Source of the DNA: Candidatus Uhrbacteria bacterium
GTDB lineage: Bacteria > Patescibacteriota > Patescibacteriia > JACRJV01
Length of the DNA stretch: 44,684 nt
Assembly (NCBI GenBank): GCA_016215325.1
Contig: JACRJV010000023.1
Span: 1 to 44,684 of the forward strand
Direction of reading: 5' to 3'
The notes under the pieces are model-generated. The model made no database searches. It saw only the letters and a list, made by a program, of their open reading frames with translations, and was not told the DNA's origin. Position 1 is the first letter of the stretch, and each line of letters begins with the position of its first letter. Shown here piece by piece: positions 7,684 through 32,431 of this stretch. The position numbers and the translations under genes were made by a program.

Positions 7684-8349
7684 TTACCGCCGCATCGCAA
7701 GCCGAGCAAGTGTGCGTACCCCATGGAAAAAATTCTGGCCTTTGGAGAGTGAATAGGCGGTATATTGGATCCGGACCGGGACTTCCTGCCAACGGATATT
7801 TCGCCGCTGAATTTCAAGGAAGAATTCGCTCGATACTTCCATCCGCGAACACCGTAAGCCAATAGAATCCATCGCGTGGGCATTAAACCCCCGAATACCC
7901 GATTGGCTATCGCTGGTTTGAATTCCAAACAGCGCCCAAGTAAGGATATTGCCAATGCGATTGTACAAACGCCGGCGCTTGGGTATCGCGTTGCCCCCTT
8001 CTAAAAAACGAGAGCCAATCACCAGATCGCATCGACCTTCTTCCAGCGGAGCGCAGATGCGCGCTATATCCTCTGCAAACATTTGCCCATCGGCATCAAG
8101 GGTTACGACAAAGTCGGCGCCCCTTCGGCGGGCGACATGGAGGCCAGTTGAAAGGGCGGCGCCCAGCCCGCAATTAAGGCGGTGGTCAATCACGACCACG
8201 CCTTCGGCTCGAGCGATTGCGCTTGTGGCGTCCAGTGACCCGTCATTGATCACAATGATTTCCTGAACCATTGGGCGCACGCTACGGATGACCTCTTGGA
8301 TTGTGGCCTGTTCGTTGAATGCCGGAATCACGGCAACTACCTTGGACAT
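7684..8349 (-). CDS. Dolichyl-phosphate-mannose-synthase-like GT2
   Basis: A 221-residue soluble GT-A transferase. Motifs: VVAVIPAFNE at the N-terminus, VINDGSLDAT, NCGLGAAL and the DADGQ metal-binding motif near residue 97, then IGSRFLEGG and SGIRGF. This is the polyprenyl-phosphate-sugar synthase branch of family 2, transferring a sugar from a nucleotide donor to a polyprenyl phosphate. No C-terminal membrane helices are present; the DUF2304 protein downstream may supply anchoring. The gene begins two bases after the stop of the epimerase-like gene, so the two are co-transcribed. Confidence 0.9.
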   Translation of the reverse strand: MSKVVAVIPAFNEQATIQEVIRSVRPMVQEIIVINDGSLDATSAIARAEGVVVIDHRLNCGLGAALSTGLHVARRRGADFVVTLDADGQMFAEDIARICAPLEEGRCDLVIGSRFLEGGNAIPKRRRLYNRIGNILTWALFGIQTSDSQSGIRGFNAHAMDSIGLRCSRMEVSSEFFLEIQRRNIRWQEVPVRIQYTAYSLSKGQNFFHGVRTLARLAMRR

Positions 8350-8351
8350 AC

Positions 8352-9347
8352 TTACCGCAATACCGCCTTCTCCGCCAACGTATACTCAATCGAATTTTTT
8401 AGCCCTTCTTCCAACGTGGTCAACGGAATCCACCCGAGCTGCTCCTTTGCTCTTGAAATATTCGGCAGCGGTAGCGGGGTCATGAATAAAAGCGGTTCTT
8501 GGAATTCGATACCCGATGAGGATTGCGTGAGCGCAATCACTTGTTGCGCCACATCCTTGAGTCGGTACGATTGTTCACCACCAAAATTCATGGGTTCTGT
8601 CCCAAGCGGCGCGGCCATAAGCTTGAGCAGCCCATCAATTAGATCTTCGACATAGAGCAGCGATGTCTCAAATGTTTCGTTCCCATAAATTACCAAGGGG
8701 TTTCGGTCCAATGCGGCAAGAATAAAGTCGGGAATCATATGACCTTGGTTAATAGGAACGCGCGGACCGTACGTCCGAAATATCCGCGCGATTTTCGCGT
8801 CGAGACGATGAACTTGTTGATAGGTCGCCATGCAGGTCTCGGCAAACCGCTTGCCTTCGTCATAACAAGCGCGCATGCCCAGCATATCAACGGTCCCTTG
8901 GTCCTGTTCATCAACCCGATCCGCCGCATGCGGTAAATGGCCATACACGACCGACGAAGACGCATGGAGCATTTTTGAACTATATTTGCGGGCAAGTTCC
9001 AATATATTGAGCATGCCGGCAGAGTTTGCCCACAATGTTTGATACCGCAAATGCAAAAAATCTTTTGGTGATGTTGGGCACGCCAAATGATAGATCTCCT
9101 GGATCCCCTGACCACCCAACGAAAATTTATGGAGCTCTGGAATTTGCTCCAACGCCAAGGGTTGGGTAACATCCAGTTTTAAAAACTCAAAATGCGGATG
9201 CGCAAATAAATGGTTGATGTTGCGCTCTTCGGAGCCCTCAAGATTATCGATGCAAATGACGCGGTGGCCTTCTTTGATTAAGCGGTGGCAAAGATGAGAA
9301 CCAATAAAACCCGCCCCGCCGGTGACGACAATATTTTTGATATCCAT
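8352..9347 (-). CDS. UDP-glucuronate decarboxylase-like SDR epimerase
   Basis: A 331-residue extended short-chain dehydrogenase/reductase. It has the TGGAGFIGSHL NAD-binding motif at residues 9-19, the DNLEG loop, ACPTSPKDF (close to the ASP-containing motif of UDP-xylose synthases), and the catalytic YDEGK pair (YxxxK). The C-terminal half has IARIFRTYGPR and PLPNISRAKEQLGW. UDP-glucuronate decarboxylase (giving UDP-xylose) is the best guess, but dTDP-glucose dehydratase or epimerase relatives cannot be excluded. It supplies activated sugar for the two downstream transferases. The start is ATG 9347 (MDIKNIVVTGG), 35 bases after the subtilase gene. Confidence 0.85.
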   Translation of the reverse strand: MDIKNIVVTGGAGFIGSHLCHRLIKEGHRVICIDNLEGSEERNINHLFAHPHFEFLKLDVTQPLALEQIPELHKFSLGGQGIQEIYHLACPTSPKDFLHLRYQTLWANSAGMLNILELARKYSSKMLHASSSVVYGHLPHAADRVDEQDQGTVDMLGMRACYDEGKRFAETCMATYQQVHRLDAKIARIFRTYGPRVPINQGHMIPDFILAALDRNPLVIYGNETFETSLLYVEDLIDGLLKLMAAPLGTEPMNFGGEQSYRLKDVAQQVIALTQSSSGIEFQEPLLFMTPLPLPNISRAKEQLGWIPLTTLEEGLKNSIEYTLAEKAVLR

Positions 9348-9382
9348 ATACCACAATATTGAATACAATCGTTCTTACTGTA

Positions 9383-11440
9383 TCACACCCCGAACGGGAG
9401 GGCAAAGGCAAAGCTCCAAAGCGCGCGATCGCCTGCCTTGCCGATAAACCAGTCTTGTTGGAACTCACCTGTTTTTGAAAATACGCGAATATGTCCGGGG
9501 CCGCTGCGCGGGACAGTGACGACGGCGTGCTCTTGACCTAAAACTCCGGTTGCCAATACATCAATAGCAAACTGGGGCGTATACGCATGATAGACGTCTT
9601 TGTTTATACGCATCGCAGAGGACCGACTCAATCCCTCGATGGTCCACGGTGCATTCTCTGCGCTCTCCCAAACACTCATGAGACGCTGTGGTATGCTGCC
9701 CACGGTTTGATCGGCGAACTCGGGTGTCGTGATATTCCCATCGGTGGTCACAGTGCGGTCCGCACGGGTGGCGCTGCGGATGCGGAGCGCTTGTCGCCCA
9801 TCCGCCATAATGTGCGGACCCACTATCCAATTATCGCGAATTGATTTGTTAAAGAAAAATTGGTTAGCAAGCAGTCGGCCATCGGGGGAATACACTTGAA
9901 GCGCCGGGCCCGCATTCTGTTGGGGGACGACAGCGATGCGCTCATTGCCCGCCGTGCCAATCGGGACAACAGCCACCCCCCCTCGGAACCCTTTCCCAAA
10001 AGGGGTTAATCGTCGAACCACTCCCCCACGGCTGTCAAGAATCAAAACACTCGACTCGGTTCCCGGGGGAGACCCAAGCACCCATTCGCCCGAGCTCAAA
10101 TGGGCGACACTGGGCATGTGTTCCCAGGGGCTTGAAAGCGCAATGGAATTGTTCAAGCCTCCATCAAGCGTGTAGGAATACACCGTGATGGTCTTCCCTG
10201 CCAAACGAGCGATTTGGATCGTTTCGGTGCGTTGGGCAGGCAGGGCCTGGGTAATGGGCGTGGGTTGTGGAGGCGGTATGGTTGCTTCAGATTTGAGCTG
10301 CTGGGTTGCACGAAAAACGTTCAGCCGGCCAGCGCCGAGTGTACCGACAAATGCTGGATTCTGCACGTCAATAGAGTCCGCCGTCGATACCAACACTTGT
10401 CCAATCCGGCGCATTGTTGTAGTGGGAAACAGCGACTTGAGCAGAGCCGCCGCGCCGCTCACCAGTGCCGTCGACATGGATGTGCCTTCAACGGGAGAGC
10501 CATAGGGGCGGACCGATCCAAACGCAGGATCTGTGGATCGCGTAACGACTAAATCCTCTCCGGGGGCAGAAAGATCGATGCATCGTTTTCCAAAACTTGC
10601 GAAATCAGACTTTTTGTCATTTCGATCCGTGGCGGTTACCCCGATAATAGCGTCGTTCGTTCCGTCATTGCAAACAGGATATAAGGGAGTGGAATCAAGA
10701 TTGTAGACCTCTGTCACCCCGCTCTCTCGCTTAATCTGATTCCCTGCGGACGCAATAATAAGGACGTCGTTTTCCGCGGCCCTTTGGATGACACGCTCTA
10801 AACTCGGGGCGCTTGTGTCGCCCACAAAACTAAAATTGATGACGTTGGCGCCGTTATCGATTGCGTAATTCATAGCAGCGACAACTTGTTTCGCCTCGCC
10901 TGTGCCATCCGATTGGATCACTCGAATCGGCATGATGCTTGCAGACCACGACACTCCGGTAATCCCTTCTTGATTATTCCCTGCTGCTGCGGCAAGACCG
11001 GCAAGAATCGTCCCATGATGGACGCCCAGCGGCGAACGATCAAGATCTCCGGCCTGGTCGAGCCGTGGACGCGGGTCATTAGTACCATTGACAAAATTCC
11101 AACCATGAATGTCATCGACGAAACCATTACGGTCGTCGTCAATACCGTTGCCGGGGATTTCACCAGGATTTGTCCAAATATTGGATTGCAGGTCCGGATG
11201 GTAAATATCAACACCGCTATCGATAATGGCAATGATCACGTCCGCAGACCCTTGGCCAAGACTGCCGCGCAGTTGCCTACCCATATCCCACGCTTGAGGC
11301 GCTTGGATTGCGTTTAAATACCACTGCTGTGAAAATCCTGGATCGTTGGGGACAATTTGCTCTGCCGCAAACACGGGCCGGGCAAGGGCCGGTACGATCG
11401 CGAGCGCGACGATAGGACCAATATATCGAATTAGGCCCAT
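9383..11440 (-). CDS. Secreted subtilisin-like serine protease (S8)
   Basis: A 685-residue exported protease. The signal peptide runs to about residue 25 (IVALAIVPALARPVFAA). The catalytic triad is D74 (IIDSGVD), H142 (HHGT) and Ser in GTSMSTALVSG (about residue 345), with the oxyanion Asn in ASAGN (N234). An insertion between D and H carries DDDRNG and DDIHGWNF, as in the subgroup with extra calcium-type loops. After a proline-rich linker (IPPPQPTPITQ) the last roughly 290 residues contain repeated beta-rich segments that resemble a propeller or lectin-like domain, which I cannot name. No sorting motif or C-terminal anchor is seen. It sits between glycolytic and surface-sugar genes; a role at the cell surface is inferred. 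Confidence 0.92.
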   Translation of the reverse strand: MGLIRYIGPIVALAIVPALARPVFAAEQIVPNDPGFSQQWYLNAIQAPQAWDMGRQLRGSLGQGSADVIIAIIDSGVDIYHPDLQSNIWTNPGEIPGNGIDDDRNGFVDDIHGWNFVNGTNDPRPRLDQAGDLDRSPLGVHHGTILAGLAAAAGNNQEGITGVSWSASIMPIRVIQSDGTGEAKQVVAAMNYAIDNGANVINFSFVGDTSAPSLERVIQRAAENDVLIIASAGNQIKRESGVTEVYNLDSTPLYPVCNDGTNDAIIGVTATDRNDKKSDFASFGKRCIDLSAPGEDLVVTRSTDPAFGSVRPYGSPVEGTSMSTALVSGAAALLKSLFPTTTMRRIGQVLVSTADSIDVQNPAFVGTLGAGRLNVFRATQQLKSEATIPPPQPTPITQALPAQRTETIQIARLAGKTITVYSYTLDGGLNNSIALSSPWEHMPSVAHLSSGEWVLGSPPGTESSVLILDSRGGVVRRLTPFGKGFRGGVAVVPIGTAGNERIAVVPQQNAGPALQVYSPDGRLLANQFFFNKSIRDNWIVGPHIMADGRQALRIRSATRADRTVTTDGNITTPEFADQTVGSIPQRLMSVWESAENAPWTIEGLSRSSAMRINKDVYHAYTPQFAIDVLATGVLGQEHAVVTVPRSGPGHIRVFSKTGEFQQDWFIGKAGDRALWSFAFALPFGV

Positions 11441-26921: not shown

Positions 26922-28223
26922 TTAATGCTTTGAAGTGAGGAACGTCTTGAGATCCTCAAATGTATTGCCAATGACAATCGATTGCTTGGCGCGTGCTGCA
27001 TACGCGCCCAGTCGATCAGGCATGGGGACTGTTTGACCGATCGCGGGCTCAACGACATCGGCGAATTTTGCGGGATGAGCAGTTTCTACGATCACCCCGG
27101 TGCAACTGGAATGCATCTGTTGGTATTCTTGGAGCGCCAAATACCCGACTGCCCCGTGTGGGTCCATGATATAGCCGTATTGCTTATATGTTGTCGCAAT
27201 GGCTCTCGTGGTCTGACCATCGGTGAATGAATAGCCGATGACGTCGTGGCGCATGGCCTCTACATCATTATTGTACAAGGCCTGCATCCGCGCAAAGTTG
27301 CTGGGGTTGCCCACATCCATGGCATTGGAAACGGTCGAAACACTCGGTTTTGGATGAAACACGCCGGTGCGCAGATACTGTGCCAATGTATCATTATTGT
27401 TGTTGGCAGCAATAAAATGTTGTATCGGGGCACCCATGCGTTTTGCCATGAGGCCTGCCGTGAGATTGCCCAGATTACCGCTCGGGACGGAAACGGTAAT
27501 CGGCATCCATTGCGGGCGCAATCGTGAACAAAGAAAAATATAATAAAACATTTGCGGGAGCAGCCGAGCAATATTAATAGAGTTTGCACTCGCGAGTTTC
27601 ATTCGCTGCGCGAGCTCTGGATCCAAAAACGCCGTTTTAACCATTGCCTGGCAGTCGTCAAAACTCCCCTGCACTTCCAGTGCCGTGATATTTTGGCCCA
27701 TGGTCGTCAATTGCTTTTCTTGCATGACGCTGACTCGACCGCTCGGATATAAGATCACTACATCAATCTTGTCGACACCTAAAAATCCGTGCGCAACGGC
27801 GCTGCCGGTATCGCCGCTGGTGGCCACAAGCACGGTGATCCGCTGGTCGAATTCTTGCGCATAGTGTGCCATCAAGCGCGCCATGAACCGCGCAGCAAAA
27901 TCTTTGAATGCAAGGGTTGGCCCGTGAAAAAGTTCTAACACCCAACTATCACGATCGAGCTGGACAAGAGGGACATCAAAGTTGAATGATTCGTCTACTA
28001 TGCGGCGGTATTCGAACCCCGGAACGCTGTCGAGAAAATACGGTGCGCCAAAAATGTAAGCGATGTCCTGAAACGACAACGAATCCATCGCCCCGATAAA
28101 CTCTGGAGAAACATGCGGGATCTCCGACGGCATGTAGAGGCCTCCGTCAGGCGCAAGTCCATTGAGTACGGCTTGTTGGAGGCTAACGGCGGGAGAACTC
28201 CCGTTCGTGCTCTGATAGTTCAC
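26922..28223 (-). CDS. thrC: Threonine synthase
   Basis: Converts O-phosphohomoserine to threonine with pyridoxal phosphate. The 433 residues include LELFHGPTLAFKDFAARFM, with the PLP-binding Lys, then VATSGDTGSAVAHGF, ILYPSGRVSVMQEKQL and SVPSGNLGNLTAGL. The overall pattern is that of the bacterial E. coli/Bacteroidetes-type enzyme. The start is set at GTG 28223 because VNYQSTNGSSPAVSLQ matches the usual family N-terminus (KYxSTxG...VS). This start overlaps the P-loop kinase gene by 41 bases. It is the last biosynthetic gene of the threonine set. Confidence 0.93.
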   Translation of the reverse strand: MNYQSTNGSSPAVSLQQAVLNGLAPDGGLYMPSEIPHVSPEFIGAMDSLSFQDIAYIFGAPYFLDSVPGFEYRRIVDESFNFDVPLVQLDRDSWVLELFHGPTLAFKDFAARFMARLMAHYAQEFDQRITVLVATSGDTGSAVAHGFLGVDKIDVVILYPSGRVSVMQEKQLTTMGQNITALEVQGSFDDCQAMVKTAFLDPELAQRMKLASANSINIARLLPQMFYYIFLCSRLRPQWMPITVSVPSGNLGNLTAGLMAKRMGAPIQHFIAANNNNDTLAQYLRTGVFHPKPSVSTVSNAMDVGNPSNFARMQALYNNDVEAMRHDVIGYSFTDGQTTRAIATTYKQYGYIMDPHGAVGYLALQEYQQMHSSCTGVIVETAHPAKFADVVEPAIGQTVPMPDRLGAYAARAKQSIVIGNTFEDLKTFLTSKH

Positions 28224-28896
28224 AATGTTTATGAACAAGGTTGATAAATTCCGAAAGTTCCATCCCTTCGGTAATTTCTTCCCGGGGAATCATGATATCT
28301 GCCAACTGCTCATAGAGCCCGCTGCGGACCTCCAGGAGTTTTAAATAGGATCGTGCCAAGGCTTGCTCATTTGTTTCATCGGGCAGCTTGGTGAACACAG
28401 ACCCGAAACACACCGGCTCCAACTCTTTAATGTATTTCTCGTACATCTCTCGTTTTCGATCTTCCGTCGCTCGGATCCCGACGACCAGTGTCTTTTGTTT
28501 GAGTTCTTCACCAATAGAGGGGTCCAGGTGGATGACGCTTCCCGTGGTATCGATCGCCGTGTTGCCGGGTGTCTTTTGAACTTCCACTAATGCCTCGCGC
28601 GTAACATCAGCTTCGATCTCAAGGTACCGCTGCTGATGTTGGGCATAGCGCTCGTCATAGGGCTGCCCCATCCAGCGCGATACATCGGCAATACCTCCGC
28701 CATATCCAGCAGCTTTCAATTCCGGGGTGAGGATCGCTTCGATGCGGTCATCGCACCCGATATACCGGAATCCTAACTTCTTCGCAAATTCATTCCGCGC
28801 CCAATGGGTTTTCCCAAGGTTGCTCATGCCAACAAACGTAATGACGAGCCGGTTGCTGAGATGGGCTTGGTCGAATTGTTCCCGCGTCATGTGCAT
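28183..28896 (-). CDS. P-loop small-molecule kinase, candidate homoserine kinase
   Basis: A 237-residue P-loop kinase-like protein. Walker A is GMSNLGKT (residues 23-30), followed by a shikimate-kinase-like sequence RYIGCDDRIEAI (D49, D50) and a lid-like GQPYDERYAQHQQRYLEIE region. The C-terminus is helical and charged. It sits between asd and thrC in the order thrA-asd-this-thrC, where a homoserine kinase gene (thrB) would be expected, and no GHMP-type ThrB is visible in the window. Homoserine kinase activity is therefore an inference from context; it could be another kinase. The start at ATG 28896 follows a good Shine-Dalgarno (AAAGGA, 6-7 bases). It overlaps asd by 10 bases. Confidence 0.75.
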   Translation of the reverse strand: MHMTREQFDQAHLSNRLVITFVGMSNLGKTHWARNEFAKKLGFRYIGCDDRIEAILTPELKAAGYGGGIADVSRWMGQPYDERYAQHQQRYLEIEADVTREALVEVQKTPGNTAIDTTGSVIHLDPSIGEELKQKTLVVGIRATEDRKREMYEKYIKELEPVCFGSVFTKLPDETNEQALARSYLKLLEVRSGLYEQLADIMIPREEITEGMELSEFINLVHKHCELSEHEREFSRR

Positions 28897-29972
28897 ATAT
28901 ATCCTTTCGCAACGAGCAATTCTGCAATCAGCACTGCCCCGCCGGCAGCGCCGCGGATGGTGTTGTGCGAAAGGCTTACGCATTTCCAACCGCCCAGCGG
29001 GTCCTCGCGCAACCGCCCCATGCTAATGCCCATCCCGTGATCAATATTCCGATCCAGTTTTGTCTGCGGGCGGTTCTCTTCATCGAAATAGGTGATAAAT
29101 GGCTCTGGCGCAGAGGGTAATTTTAAGTCGCTCAATGGATTCGGGAAATTCCGGATCGCGTCCAGTAGTTGCTGTTTGGTGGGGCTGCCCTTGAACAACA
29201 CATTCAGGGTCGCAAAATGCCCGTCCGAAGCGCTCACGCGGATGCATTGGGCCGAAATGCGTGGTGTCTCTGACAATATAAATTCCCCATCAACAATGGT
29301 TGCCCAAATTTTGAGCGGTTCTTTCTCACTCTTTTCTTCTTCTCCGCCAATATAGGGGATGACATTGTCGACCATTTCGGGCCAAGTGGCAAATGTTTTG
29401 CCTGCACCGGAGATCGCTTGATACGTGGAAACGCGCAATTGTTGAGGCTCAAATTGCTTCCATGCCTCCAAGATCGGGACATAACATTGAATCGAGCAAT
29501 TGGGTTTGACAACGATGAACCCCGTATTCCATCCGCGATGGTTGCGTTGCACCGGAATCATATCCAAATGGTGGGGATTAACCTCTGGCATAATCATAGG
29601 CACATCAGCGGTCCAACGGTTGGCAGAATTATTCGAGACGACCGCTACCCCGGCTTTGGCATACCCGTCTTCGATCGATCTAATTGCGTCGGCATCCAAA
29701 TCAATCGCGCAAAACACAAGTTTTACTTTTGAAGCAATGGTCACAAGGTCCTGGTCCACAGCATACACGGGCATTTGCTTCACCGCATCGGGCATCGGCT
29801 CGACGAGTGCCCAACGATTGCCGATGGCCTGATCGTAGGGCTTGCCCGCAGAGGCAGACGATGCCCCCAGTGCTGAAATTTCAAACCATGGGTGCTTGGC
29901 CAAGAGAGTGACAAATCGCTGGCCCACCATCCCAGTAGCGCCTAAAATTCCAACGGGGATTTTTTGCTGCAT
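28887..29972 (-). CDS. asd: Aspartate-semialdehyde dehydrogenase
   Basis: Reduces aspartyl phosphate to aspartate semialdehyde with NADPH, the branch step to threonine and lysine. At 361 residues and with an archaeal/fungal-style sequence (GILGATGMVGQRFV, NNSANRW, PNCSIQC with the catalytic Cys, SGAGKTF), it is not the usual short bacterial type. The C-terminal part has HNTIRGAAGG. It starts three bases after the thrA-encoded stop and ends with a 10-base overlap into the kinase gene, so all four genes form one unit. Confidence 0.92.
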   Translation of the reverse strand: MQQKIPVGILGATGMVGQRFVTLLAKHPWFEISALGASSASAGKPYDQAIGNRWALVEPMPDAVKQMPVYAVDQDLVTIASKVKLVFCAIDLDADAIRSIEDGYAKAGVAVVSNNSANRWTADVPMIMPEVNPHHLDMIPVQRNHRGWNTGFIVVKPNCSIQCYVPILEAWKQFEPQQLRVSTYQAISGAGKTFATWPEMVDNVIPYIGGEEEKSEKEPLKIWATIVDGEFILSETPRISAQCIRVSASDGHFATLNVLFKGSPTKQQLLDAIRNFPNPLSDLKLPSAPEPFITYFDEENRPQTKLDRNIDHGMGISMGRLREDPLGGWKCVSLSHNTIRGAAGGAVLIAELLVAKGYICT

Positions 29973-29975
29973 ATT

Positions 29976-30899
29976 CTAACTCTTAAAACATTGAATAATG
30001 TCCGCTAATACTCCGCCCGCCGTCACTTCGGCTCCGGCGCCAGGGCCGCGAATCACCAGTGGCGTCGTGTTGTAGCGCTTGGTGGTAAACATCACAATGT
30101 TATCGCTGCCGCTCAACCCATACATCGCGTGTGTGCGGTCAACGGCGGTCAGTGCGATACGCGCCTCACCGTTGTCCAGCGTTGCCACAAAACATAACTT
30201 CTTATTATCCGCTGCAGCGAGTTGTTTTTTTGATTCGAAATCTACATTGAGTGTTTCCAGTGCTGTAAAGAATTGTTCGATGGATGGAGCGCTAAAACAT
30301 TCTGCCGGCAGCAGGGCCTCGATCTGGACATCCGCAAGCTCCATCGCCAATCCCATCTCACGTGCCAAAATCAAGATCTTTCGCGCAACGTCTTTGCCGT
30401 TTAGATCATCGCGCGGGTCTGGCTCGGTATAACCTTTGCTCTGGGCATCCCGAACAATGGCGCTGAAGGGCAGGTTGGATGATGCAAATGTATTAAAAAT
30501 GTAGCTCAGGGTGCCGGAAAGGACCGCTTCGATCCGGATAATCTCATCGCCGCATTGCATCAGGCTTTTGATCGTATGAATGACGGGCAGCGCCGCGCCG
30601 ACATTTGTTTCGTATCGAAACACGGCGCCGTTGTCGCCGCTTGCGTTCTGGAGCGCCCGATACTGCTCTAGGGACCCGGAGTTCCCTTTTTTATTGGGGG
30701 TGACCACAGAGATGCCGCGCTCGAGTAGCCCCCGATACCAACGCGGGATTTCTTCACTGGCCGTGCAGTCCACGAAGACGCTGCTGCCCGGGCGCGCCTC
30801 TTGGACAGCACGCACAAACTGTTCGGGACTGCTCGCCGAACCGCTGCTTATTGATTTTTTCCAGGCATCCAGCGCAATGCCCTGGGGGTCGATCAACAT
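29976..30899 (-). CDS. Homoserine dehydrogenase part of ThrA, truncated at its start
   Basis: The 307-residue product holds the catalytic half of homoserine dehydrogenase: VFVDCTASEEIP, VVTPNKKGNSGSL, YETNVGAALPVI, LSGTLSYIFN and GYTEPDPRDDLNG, and it ends with RGPGAGAEVTAGGVLADI. If translated from ATG 30899 it lacks the GxGxxG nucleotide fold, which is encoded just upstream in the same frame but without a start codon. A functional enzyme would need a frameshift repair, a fused product, or a non-standard start. It ends three bases before asd. Confidence 0.7.
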   Translation of the reverse strand: MLIDPQGIALDAWKKSISSGSASSPEQFVRAVQEARPGSSVFVDCTASEEIPRWYRGLLERGISVVTPNKKGNSGSLEQYRALQNASGDNGAVFRYETNVGAALPVIHTIKSLMQCGDEIIRIEAVLSGTLSYIFNTFASSNLPFSAIVRDAQSKGYTEPDPRDDLNGKDVARKILILAREMGLAMELADVQIEALLPAECFSAPSIEQFFTALETLNVDFESKKQLAAADNKKLCFVATLDNGEARIALTAVDRTHAMYGLSGSDNIVMFTTKRYNTTPLVIRGPGAGAEVTAGGVLADIIQCFKS

Positions 30900-30934
30900 A
30901 GTTTTTTGGTTTGCAATGCCGCAAACGCGGATCG

Positions 30935-31297
30935 TCAGGCCGTATTGTGTATAATGGCGTTCCTTCGCTTCATGGATTTGCTTAAGCAGCGTCCCGCCAA
31001 TAAGCCCGGTGCCGATGAGGAATACATGAATCGTTCGCTGGCTCCCCTCTGAAAAGAATGCTTCATGAATGGCGTTGACTCTGCCGATTTCTCATCGTTC
31101 ATCTCAACGACAGCGGAAATATTGAGTTCCGAAGATCCTTGGGCAATGGCGACGATATTGATCCCGAGCCGGCCAAGAGTATCAAAGACTTTCCCCGCGA
31201 TGCCGGGGACTCCTTTCATTTGCTCCCCCACCACTGCCACAATCGAGAGGTGATCTTGGACCGTGATCGGGCTCATCCGCTGCATTTGGAGTTCCAT
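30935..31297 (-). CDS. ThrA middle fragment with an ACT domain
   Basis: A 120-residue reading frame in the same frame as the aspartate kinase part, beyond its stop. It carries an ACT-domain sequence (LSIVAVVGEQMKGVPGIAGKVF and NIVAIAQGSSELNIS) that matches the second ACT region of ThrA. It then goes out of frame after EMNDEKSA; the rest of the open frame is nonsense. Unlikely to be a gene by itself; listed as a part of the disrupted thrA. Confidence 0.45.
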   Translation of the reverse strand: MELQMQRMSPITVQDHLSIVAVVGEQMKGVPGIAGKVFDTLGRLGINIVAIAQGSSELNISAVVEMNDEKSAESTPFMKHSFQRGASERFMYSSSAPGLLAGRCLSKSMKRRNAIIHNTA

Positions 31298-31381
31298 CTC
31301 AAAAACTTCTTCCAGCAGTTTTTGCGCCGCAGTCGCCTGGGGTGCATGGACGCCGATACAAACACTCGGCTCATACGAGGC

Positions 31382-32431
31382 TTACGTGGTAAGCAATACT
31401 TCGATGTGTTCCTTGGAAAGCGCCTGAAATACACGAGCGGAAATCTCCGAAATATATTTGATGCTGCTGCTTTGCAATCGTAACAACGCGATATTGGCTA
31501 ACGACGAGACACCCGTGACAAGGTGTTGGCGTTGTTTGGAAACTCCGTCAATCAGCGTCCCCGGCGCCTCGGGGTTAAAAGTATTTTTAATGAGAATTGG
31601 AATATTCTTGAGCCGTGCGGGCTTCATGGTTTTGGGATGAATGACCTTTGCCCCAAAGTGCGCGAGCTCCCCTGCTTCCTCGTACGAAATTGATGTGAGC
31701 GGAAACGCGCCCTTCACATGCCGCGGATCTGCCGTCATGACCCCATCCACATCGGTCCAAATTTCGATGATCGGAGCATCCAACGCTGCGCCCAGCAGCG
31801 ATGCTGTATAATCAGAGCCGCCGCGGCCCAACGTAGTCGTAACCCCGCTTTGGTCTGCGGCAATAAAGCCGCCCATCACCGAAAGCCCTTGTTGCTGCTT
31901 GAACGCATGGGCAATCCGCTGATAGGTGGCTTCGATCTGCACAGCGGCATGCCCAAATTTATTGTCGGTTTGGATGAGCTCGCGCGCATCGACATACGTA
32001 CAAGGCACGCCGCGATAATTGAATGCCGCGCTGATGATTTGCGCAGAAAGTTGCTCGCCCGTGCTCATAATGGCGTCGAGCGCCTGAGTAGAGAGCTCTT
32101 TGAGCAGTGCAACGCCTTGGAGCAGGTTGTCGAGTTCATCGCAGAGTTTTTGGGCCTGCGTCTGGACGGGTTGCCGGGCGTTTGTCCCAAGGAGTTCTTC
32201 GATCATCTCTTGGTGTTTGCGGCAAAGCGCTTCAAACAGGGCCTGATACGAGTCGTTCCCAGACCGTGCGGCTTCCGCCATTTGAATCAGGCTGTCGGTT
32301 ATCCCGCCCGCGGCAGAGACGACCACGATAATATCGTGATCCTGTTGGTGTTGTCCCAAGACAATATCAATAACGCGGCTGATATTGGCCGCGTTGGCAA
32401 CAGACGAACCCCCAAATTTAAGCACTTTCAT
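31382..32431 (-). CDS. Aspartate kinase part of ThrA, ending at an in-frame stop
   Basis: A 349-residue product as written. It starts MKVLKFGGSSVANA, the conserved aspartate kinase N-terminus, with later VVSAAGG, MSTGEQLSA, GFIAADQSG, TTLGRGGSDYTA, WTDVDGVMTADPR and SYEEAGELAHFGAKVIHPKTM. It phosphorylates aspartate at the head of the threonine/lysine pathway. It includes the first ACT region (ISARVFQALSKEHIEVLLTT) and then stops where a Gln codon is expected. The kinase domain itself is complete and could still work on its own. The start ATG is 8 bases after a -10 box, so it is probably leaderless. Confidence 0.85.
   Translation of the reverse strand: MKVLKFGGSSVANAANISRVIDIVLGQHQQDHDIIVVVSAAGGITDSLIQMAEAARSGNDSYQALFEALCRKHQEMIEELLGTNARQPVQTQAQKLCDELDNLLQGVALLKELSTQALDAIMSTGEQLSAQIISAAFNYRGVPCTYVDARELIQTDNKFGHAAVQIEATYQRIAHAFKQQQGLSVMGGFIAADQSGVTTTLGRGGSDYTASLLGAALDAPIIEIWTDVDGVMTADPRHVKGAFPLTSISYEEAGELAHFGAKVIHPKTMKPARLKNIPILIKNTFNPEAPGTLIDGVSKQRQHLVTGVSSLANIALLRLQSSSIKYISEISARVFQALSKEHIEVLLTT

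What the first reader, a model, noticed from the sequence alone, without database searches (positions are those of the whole stretch)
29976..32431. Full-length bifunctional ThrA broken by an in-frame TAA and a one-base frameshift
Seen: reading through one TAA (31384-31382) and one -1 shift near 31083 restores an 818-residue ThrA with all motifs, including GTGLIG. The stop falls exactly where a Gln is conserved in the family, one C-to-T change from CAA. The rest of the operon is intact and the kinase domain is complete. Inference: either very recent decay of an acquired operon, a consensus error in the assembly, or real decoding events (readthrough and frameshift). The frameshift site has no classical slippery heptamer.
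Basis: partly seen in the sequence, partly recalled or inferred. Interest (0 to 1): 0.75.

Follow-up and report, generated by a model that had tools for sequence, protein, structure and literature searches.

The report
Recently broken threonine-pathway gene thrA
The gene for the first and third steps of threonine synthesis in an uncultured small-genome bacterium is interrupted by one stop codon and one small insertion, most likely ordinary recent gene decay (or, less likely, an assembly error), with nothing to suggest special decoding.

Summary
The two breaks are real in the sequence. A TAA at 31384-31382 sits on a column that is Gln in 67 of 67 intact ThrA, and the frame changes at about 31080. 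The lesion fits an extra AG (AGAG, 31082-31079) better than a lost base: this restores the family length and scores higher (1150.8 against 1146.1 bits). The window is a contig of a 1.14-Mb draft genome placed in Patescibacteria. This is its only homoserine dehydrogenase and only aspartokinase hit, so the pathway looks blocked although asd, a P-loop kinase and thrC are intact. No recoding signal was found: TAA is the commonest stop, none of 46 tRNAs reads a stop codon, both sites fold ordinarily, and the closest relative (G040) has an uninterrupted thrA in the same operon. In 414 kb sampled, thrA is the only clear nonsense break; the only other convincing frame break is in valS, at a 7-nt repeat. 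Two different lesions 300 nt apart favour recent decay over scattered consensus errors, but without reads an artefact stays possible. Side result: own, G040 and G387 ThrA form a 100/100 clade whose first ACT domain lost the usual effector-loop glycines.

The parts
31382..32431 (-). thrA piece 1: aspartokinase catalytic domain, ends at in-frame TAA inside the first ACT domain (349 aa)
   Evidence: ORF list; PF00696 2e-50; NF006959 ThrA model 1-350 of 819
31382..31384 (-). in-frame TAA on the column that is Gln in 67 of 67 intact ThrA
31079..31082 (-). AGAG: apparent AG duplication (+2) that shifts the frame
   Evidence: HMM of 67 intact ThrA: 2-nt removal 1150.8 bits, best 1-nt addition 1146.1 bits; family length restored
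30935..31381 (-). thrA piece 2, same frame as piece 1: end of ACT1 and ACT2 up to the shift, then out-of-frame tail to a stop at 30937-30935
   Evidence: ACT_9 4.7e-27 in the read-through protein P0001
29976..31091 (-). thrA piece 3: homoserine dehydrogenase in the shifted frame; frame opens after TGA at 31094-31092; first ATG at 30899 lies after GTGLIG (31013-30996)
   Evidence: PF00742 1.9e-49
28887..29972 (-). asd, aspartate-semialdehyde dehydrogenase, intact
   Evidence: TIGR00978 9.2e-93
28222..28896 (-). P-loop kinase, probable homoserine kinase of the operon, intact
   Evidence: weak NF040667 match; 46% identical to the gene at the same place in G040
26922..28238 (-). thrC, threonine synthase, intact
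   Evidence: TIGR00260 2.8e-83

Best explanation
A recently inactivated thrA. A C-to-T change made a TAA in the first ACT domain and an AG duplication shifted the frame 300 nt further on, so the cell would make an aspartokinase catalytic piece without a complete regulatory domain and no working homoserine dehydrogenase. As no other copy was found, synthesis of threonine from aspartate is probably lost or being lost in the sampled strain, while asd, the kinase gene and thrC have not yet decayed. Shown: both lesions in the sequence, the intact relatives, the absence of a second copy in a genome rated 92.6% complete. Inferred: that the lesions exist in the living population, their order, and loss of the pathway.
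For: Two unlike lesions 303 nt apart in one gene, while a coding-potential survey of 414 kb found one other convincing mid-gene shift, in valS, and no other nonsense case without a nearby start codon except one pilin-region case. With about three lesions per 414 kb, two falling within 303 nt by chance is about 0.4% (my rough calculation). Both are ordinary spontaneous mutation types and neither is at a homopolymer. Relatives are intact: 67 full-length loci, nearest G040. Only homoserine dehydrogenase and only aspartokinase hit in the genome; no DHDPS, so only threonine would depend on the aspartokinase. The first ACT domain was already under relaxed constraint in this clade.
Against: No reads, no second strain and no close relative (own order holds one genome), so the base calls cannot be checked. 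Outside ACT1 none of the conserved columns is violated, as expected for an intact gene or very recent decay. The only valS is also out of frame, so this assembly may contain indel errors.
Confidence: 0.62

Rival explanations
1. Consensus or assembly error: the organism has an intact thrA and both breaks were made by sequencing, low coverage or mixing of strains.
For: Everything outside the two sites looks like a gene under selection (3 of 123 conserved columns changed, median of others 2). The only valS, an essential gene, is also out of frame, so errors or strain mixing may exist in this assembly.
Against: Breaks are rare in 414 kb, so two independent errors 303 nt apart are unlikely unless this stretch was poorly covered. 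Neither lesion is at a homopolymer, and flanking operon genes are clean.
Confidence: 0.29
2. Programmed decoding: the TAA is read through and the ribosome changes frame, giving full-length ThrA.
For: The frames remain open and conserved on both sides of each site.
Against: TAA ends 118 of 256 long ORFs; none of 46 tRNA loci has a stop-reading anticodon; folds at the sites are ordinary (z -0.38 and +1.39); two separate events would be needed, the second best described as a 2-nt gain; relatives including G040 have an uninterrupted gene; stops in other ThrA lie elsewhere (codons 91 and 536).
Confidence: 0.03
3. Useful fission: a deregulated kinase piece and a separate homoserine dehydrogenase are both made and work.
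For: Adjacent separate aspartokinase and homoserine dehydrogenase genes occur in the same class (L093, L099, L101-L103). A GAGGGGAG stretch lies upstream of GTGLIG in the dehydrogenase frame.
Against: Natural splits fall after ACT2, and L093 for instance has Met just before the Rossmann motif. Here the first stop cuts ACT1, and the dehydrogenase frame has no ATG, GTG or TTG before GTGLIG.
Confidence: 0.06

Closest known systems
Bifunctional aspartokinase/homoserine dehydrogenase I (ThrA, NF006959)
   Same: Domain order AK-ACT1-ACT2-HDH, and all pieces hit this model in order
   Different: Interrupted by a TAA and a frameshift; the first ACT domain is divergent
thrA of class-mate G040 (L006, L128)
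   Same: 58% identical in the kinase half, same operon thrA-asd-kinase-thrC
   Different: Open reading frame of 815 codons without a break; flanked by transposases and a recombinase
Other broken ThrA: L098 (G200, TAA at codon 91) and L074 (stop at aa 536)
   Same: Full-length homology with an in-frame stop
   Different: Single lesions at other places

Membership tests
ThrA (bifunctional AK-HDH) | AK catalytic domain | tested here: met
   PF00696 2e-50
ThrA (bifunctional AK-HDH) | two ACT domains between AK and HDH | tested here: met
   Present in the read-through protein, but ACT1 is divergent
ThrA (bifunctional AK-HDH) | HDH domain | tested here: met
   PF00742 1.9e-49
ThrA (bifunctional AK-HDH) | one uninterrupted open reading frame | tested here: not met
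   TAA plus frameshift
pseudogene | disabling lesions absent from homologues | tested here: met
   67 intact relatives
pseudogene | lesions present in the organism's DNA (not an assembly artefact) | not testable with these tools
   no reads available
programmed recoding | site conserved in relatives | tested here: not met
   G040, G387 and the other intact relatives have no break
programmed recoding | stimulatory structure | tested here: not met
stop-codon reassignment | TAA used as sense codon and a matching tRNA | tested here: not met

The most novel reading that the evidence does not exclude
In a small clade of Patescibacteria ThrA (own, G040, G387) the first ACT domain has lost the usual effector-loop glycines and evolves under relaxed constraint, so feedback control by threonine was given up first and the gene then began to break down: a visible order of steps in the loss of an amino-acid pathway.
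Probability: 0.35. Interest if true: 0.35.

Novelty: new member of a known kind. Interest (0 to 1): 0.17.

Why it matters
If the decay is real, it catches an early stage of pathway loss in a small-genome bacterium, with the rest of the operon still intact. The shared change in the regulatory ACT1 domain gives a testable idea about the order of events. Otherwise it is a reminder that single-genome breaks in draft assemblies need read support before recoding is invoked.

Tried and rejected
Programmed readthrough and frameshifting: no tRNA, structure or conservation supports them. Genetic code change: TAA is the commonest stop. A functional split gene: the breaks are in the wrong places and the dehydrogenase lacks a start codon. 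A second copy elsewhere: none found. One-base deletion: fits worse than an AG duplication. Looking for closer relatives in the own order: none held. The frame survey has limits: at the loose setting it recovered 10 of 10 test shifts but only 3 of 10 test stops, so stops were surveyed separately. A paper search on the threonine-binding Gln found nothing directly usable.

Full report
What was checked. The window is contig C20 of a draft genome of 1,136,975 bases in 27 contigs, rated 92.6% complete. Its phylum is taken as Patescibacteria, because class-mate G320 holds the contig named 'Patescibacteria group bacterium isolate B18T3L11' (L068 and L092 share sequence). On the minus strand the ThrA kinase frame runs from 32431 to a TAA at 31384-31382. 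Homology goes on in the same frame to about residue 449 and then in another frame to 29976. The pieces match the ThrA model NF006959 in order.

The stop. In an alignment with 67 intact ThrA sequences the column of the TAA is Gln in all 67. TAA lies one change from CAA. From my own knowledge this Gln corresponds to a threonine-binding residue of plant AK-HSDH; I could not cite it from the library.

The frameshift. All 67 relatives have a gap where the one-base reading would add a residue. Scoring all one-base additions and two-base removals near the site against a profile of the 67, removal of one AG from AGAG (31082-31079) scored best, 1150.8 bits against 1146.1 for the best one-base addition. 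It gives ...NDEKSAVNAIHEAFF..., with the family's usual Ala. So the lesion is most likely a dinucleotide duplication and the full product would have 817 residues. The margin is small (4.7 bits), so the length argument carries as much weight as the score.

No second copy. The genome has one homoserine dehydrogenase, one match to the ThrA kinase half and no dihydrodipicolinate synthase. If thrA is dead, the intact asd, P-loop kinase and thrC cannot make threonine from aspartate, unless a copy lies in the missing part of the genome.

No decoding signal. TAA ends 118 of 256 long ORFs in the sample. ARAGORN found no tRNA reading a stop codon among the 46 tRNA loci. The RNA around both sites folds no better than shuffled sequence (z -0.38 and +1.39). 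The nearest relative G040 has an open 815-codon thrA in the same operon, and G387 is also open. In-frame stops in two other ThrA, L098 and L074, are at other positions.

Decay or artefact. I took stretches adding up to 414 kb with the window. A frame-aware coding model at a strict setting found three shifts: thrA, valS on C5, and one on C6 whose upstream stop and downstream start codon are close, as between neighbouring genes. At a looser setting most calls were ordinary gene junctions; the remaining mid-gene candidates looked like short spurious frames when translated. Among 24 in-frame stops with coding signal on both sides, nearly all have a start codon within about 50 nt downstream; thrA (first start at 87) and a pilin-region case (72) are the exceptions. 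Two lesions of different type 303 nt apart are thus unlikely as scattered errors (about 0.4% by a rough count). Against this, valS, present once and essential, is also out of frame, at an array of four 7-nt units, so indel errors or strain mixing in this assembly cannot be dismissed. Outside ACT1 the protein shows no excess of odd residues. Real decay must therefore be recent.

ACT1. At columns conserved in at least 80% of ThrA, own mismatches 59% in residues 320-360, G040 50%, the others 5.7% on average with a maximum of 39%. G387 shares this (58%). The three form a clade with 100/100 support. The usual GxGMxGxxG loop reads SSSIKYISE, SNNGKSIGE and SNNGKSVAE. Inside the clade this stretch is 9 to 19 points less conserved than the kinase domain, while in pairs outside the clade it is on average 12 points more conserved. 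This points to relaxed constraint on the first regulatory domain before the break, which is inference. The cluster of odd residues near the stop is therefore inherited and not a trace of the decay.

Natural splits. Several class members carry separate neighbouring aspartokinase and homoserine dehydrogenase genes (L093, L099, L101-L103), with the boundary after ACT2. Here the first stop lies inside ACT1, and the dehydrogenase frame has no ATG, GTG or TTG before GTGLIG, so a useful fission is unlikely.

Verdict. The most likely reading is ordinary recent decay of thrA in an uncultured bacterium, with consensus error as the main rival. Recoding is not supported.

Noticed in passing
L132 (G000:C5) 8241-11095: The only valS is split by a frame change at four 7-nt units (GGGTCCA twice, GGGTTCA twice) in the linker before the anticodon-binding part; error, strain mixing or real variation.
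   Followed up: partly
window 31290-31480 (ACT1 of thrA), L006, L190: Three ThrA from two classes share a first ACT domain without the usual effector-loop glycines.
   Followed up: partly
window 28222-28896: P-loop kinase between asd and thrC, conserved in thr operons of at least five Patescibacteria; probable homoserine kinase only weakly matched by NF040667.
   Followed up: partly
L194, L195 (G454, G441): ThrA homology begins only at residue 218, with the HDH half intact, in genomes that hold a second aspartokinase.
   Followed up: no
L098 (codon 91), L074 (aa 536): Two other ThrA loci carry a single in-frame stop.
   Followed up: partly
window about 1-120 and L129 (G000:C1) about 1-120: The two contig ends gave an identical frame-survey pattern at position 57, suggesting a shared repeat at the ends.
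   Followed up: no
L128 3489-5439 and 11623-12432: The intact thr operon of G040 is flanked by IS481-like and IS982 transposases and a serine recombinase-like gene.
   Followed up: partly
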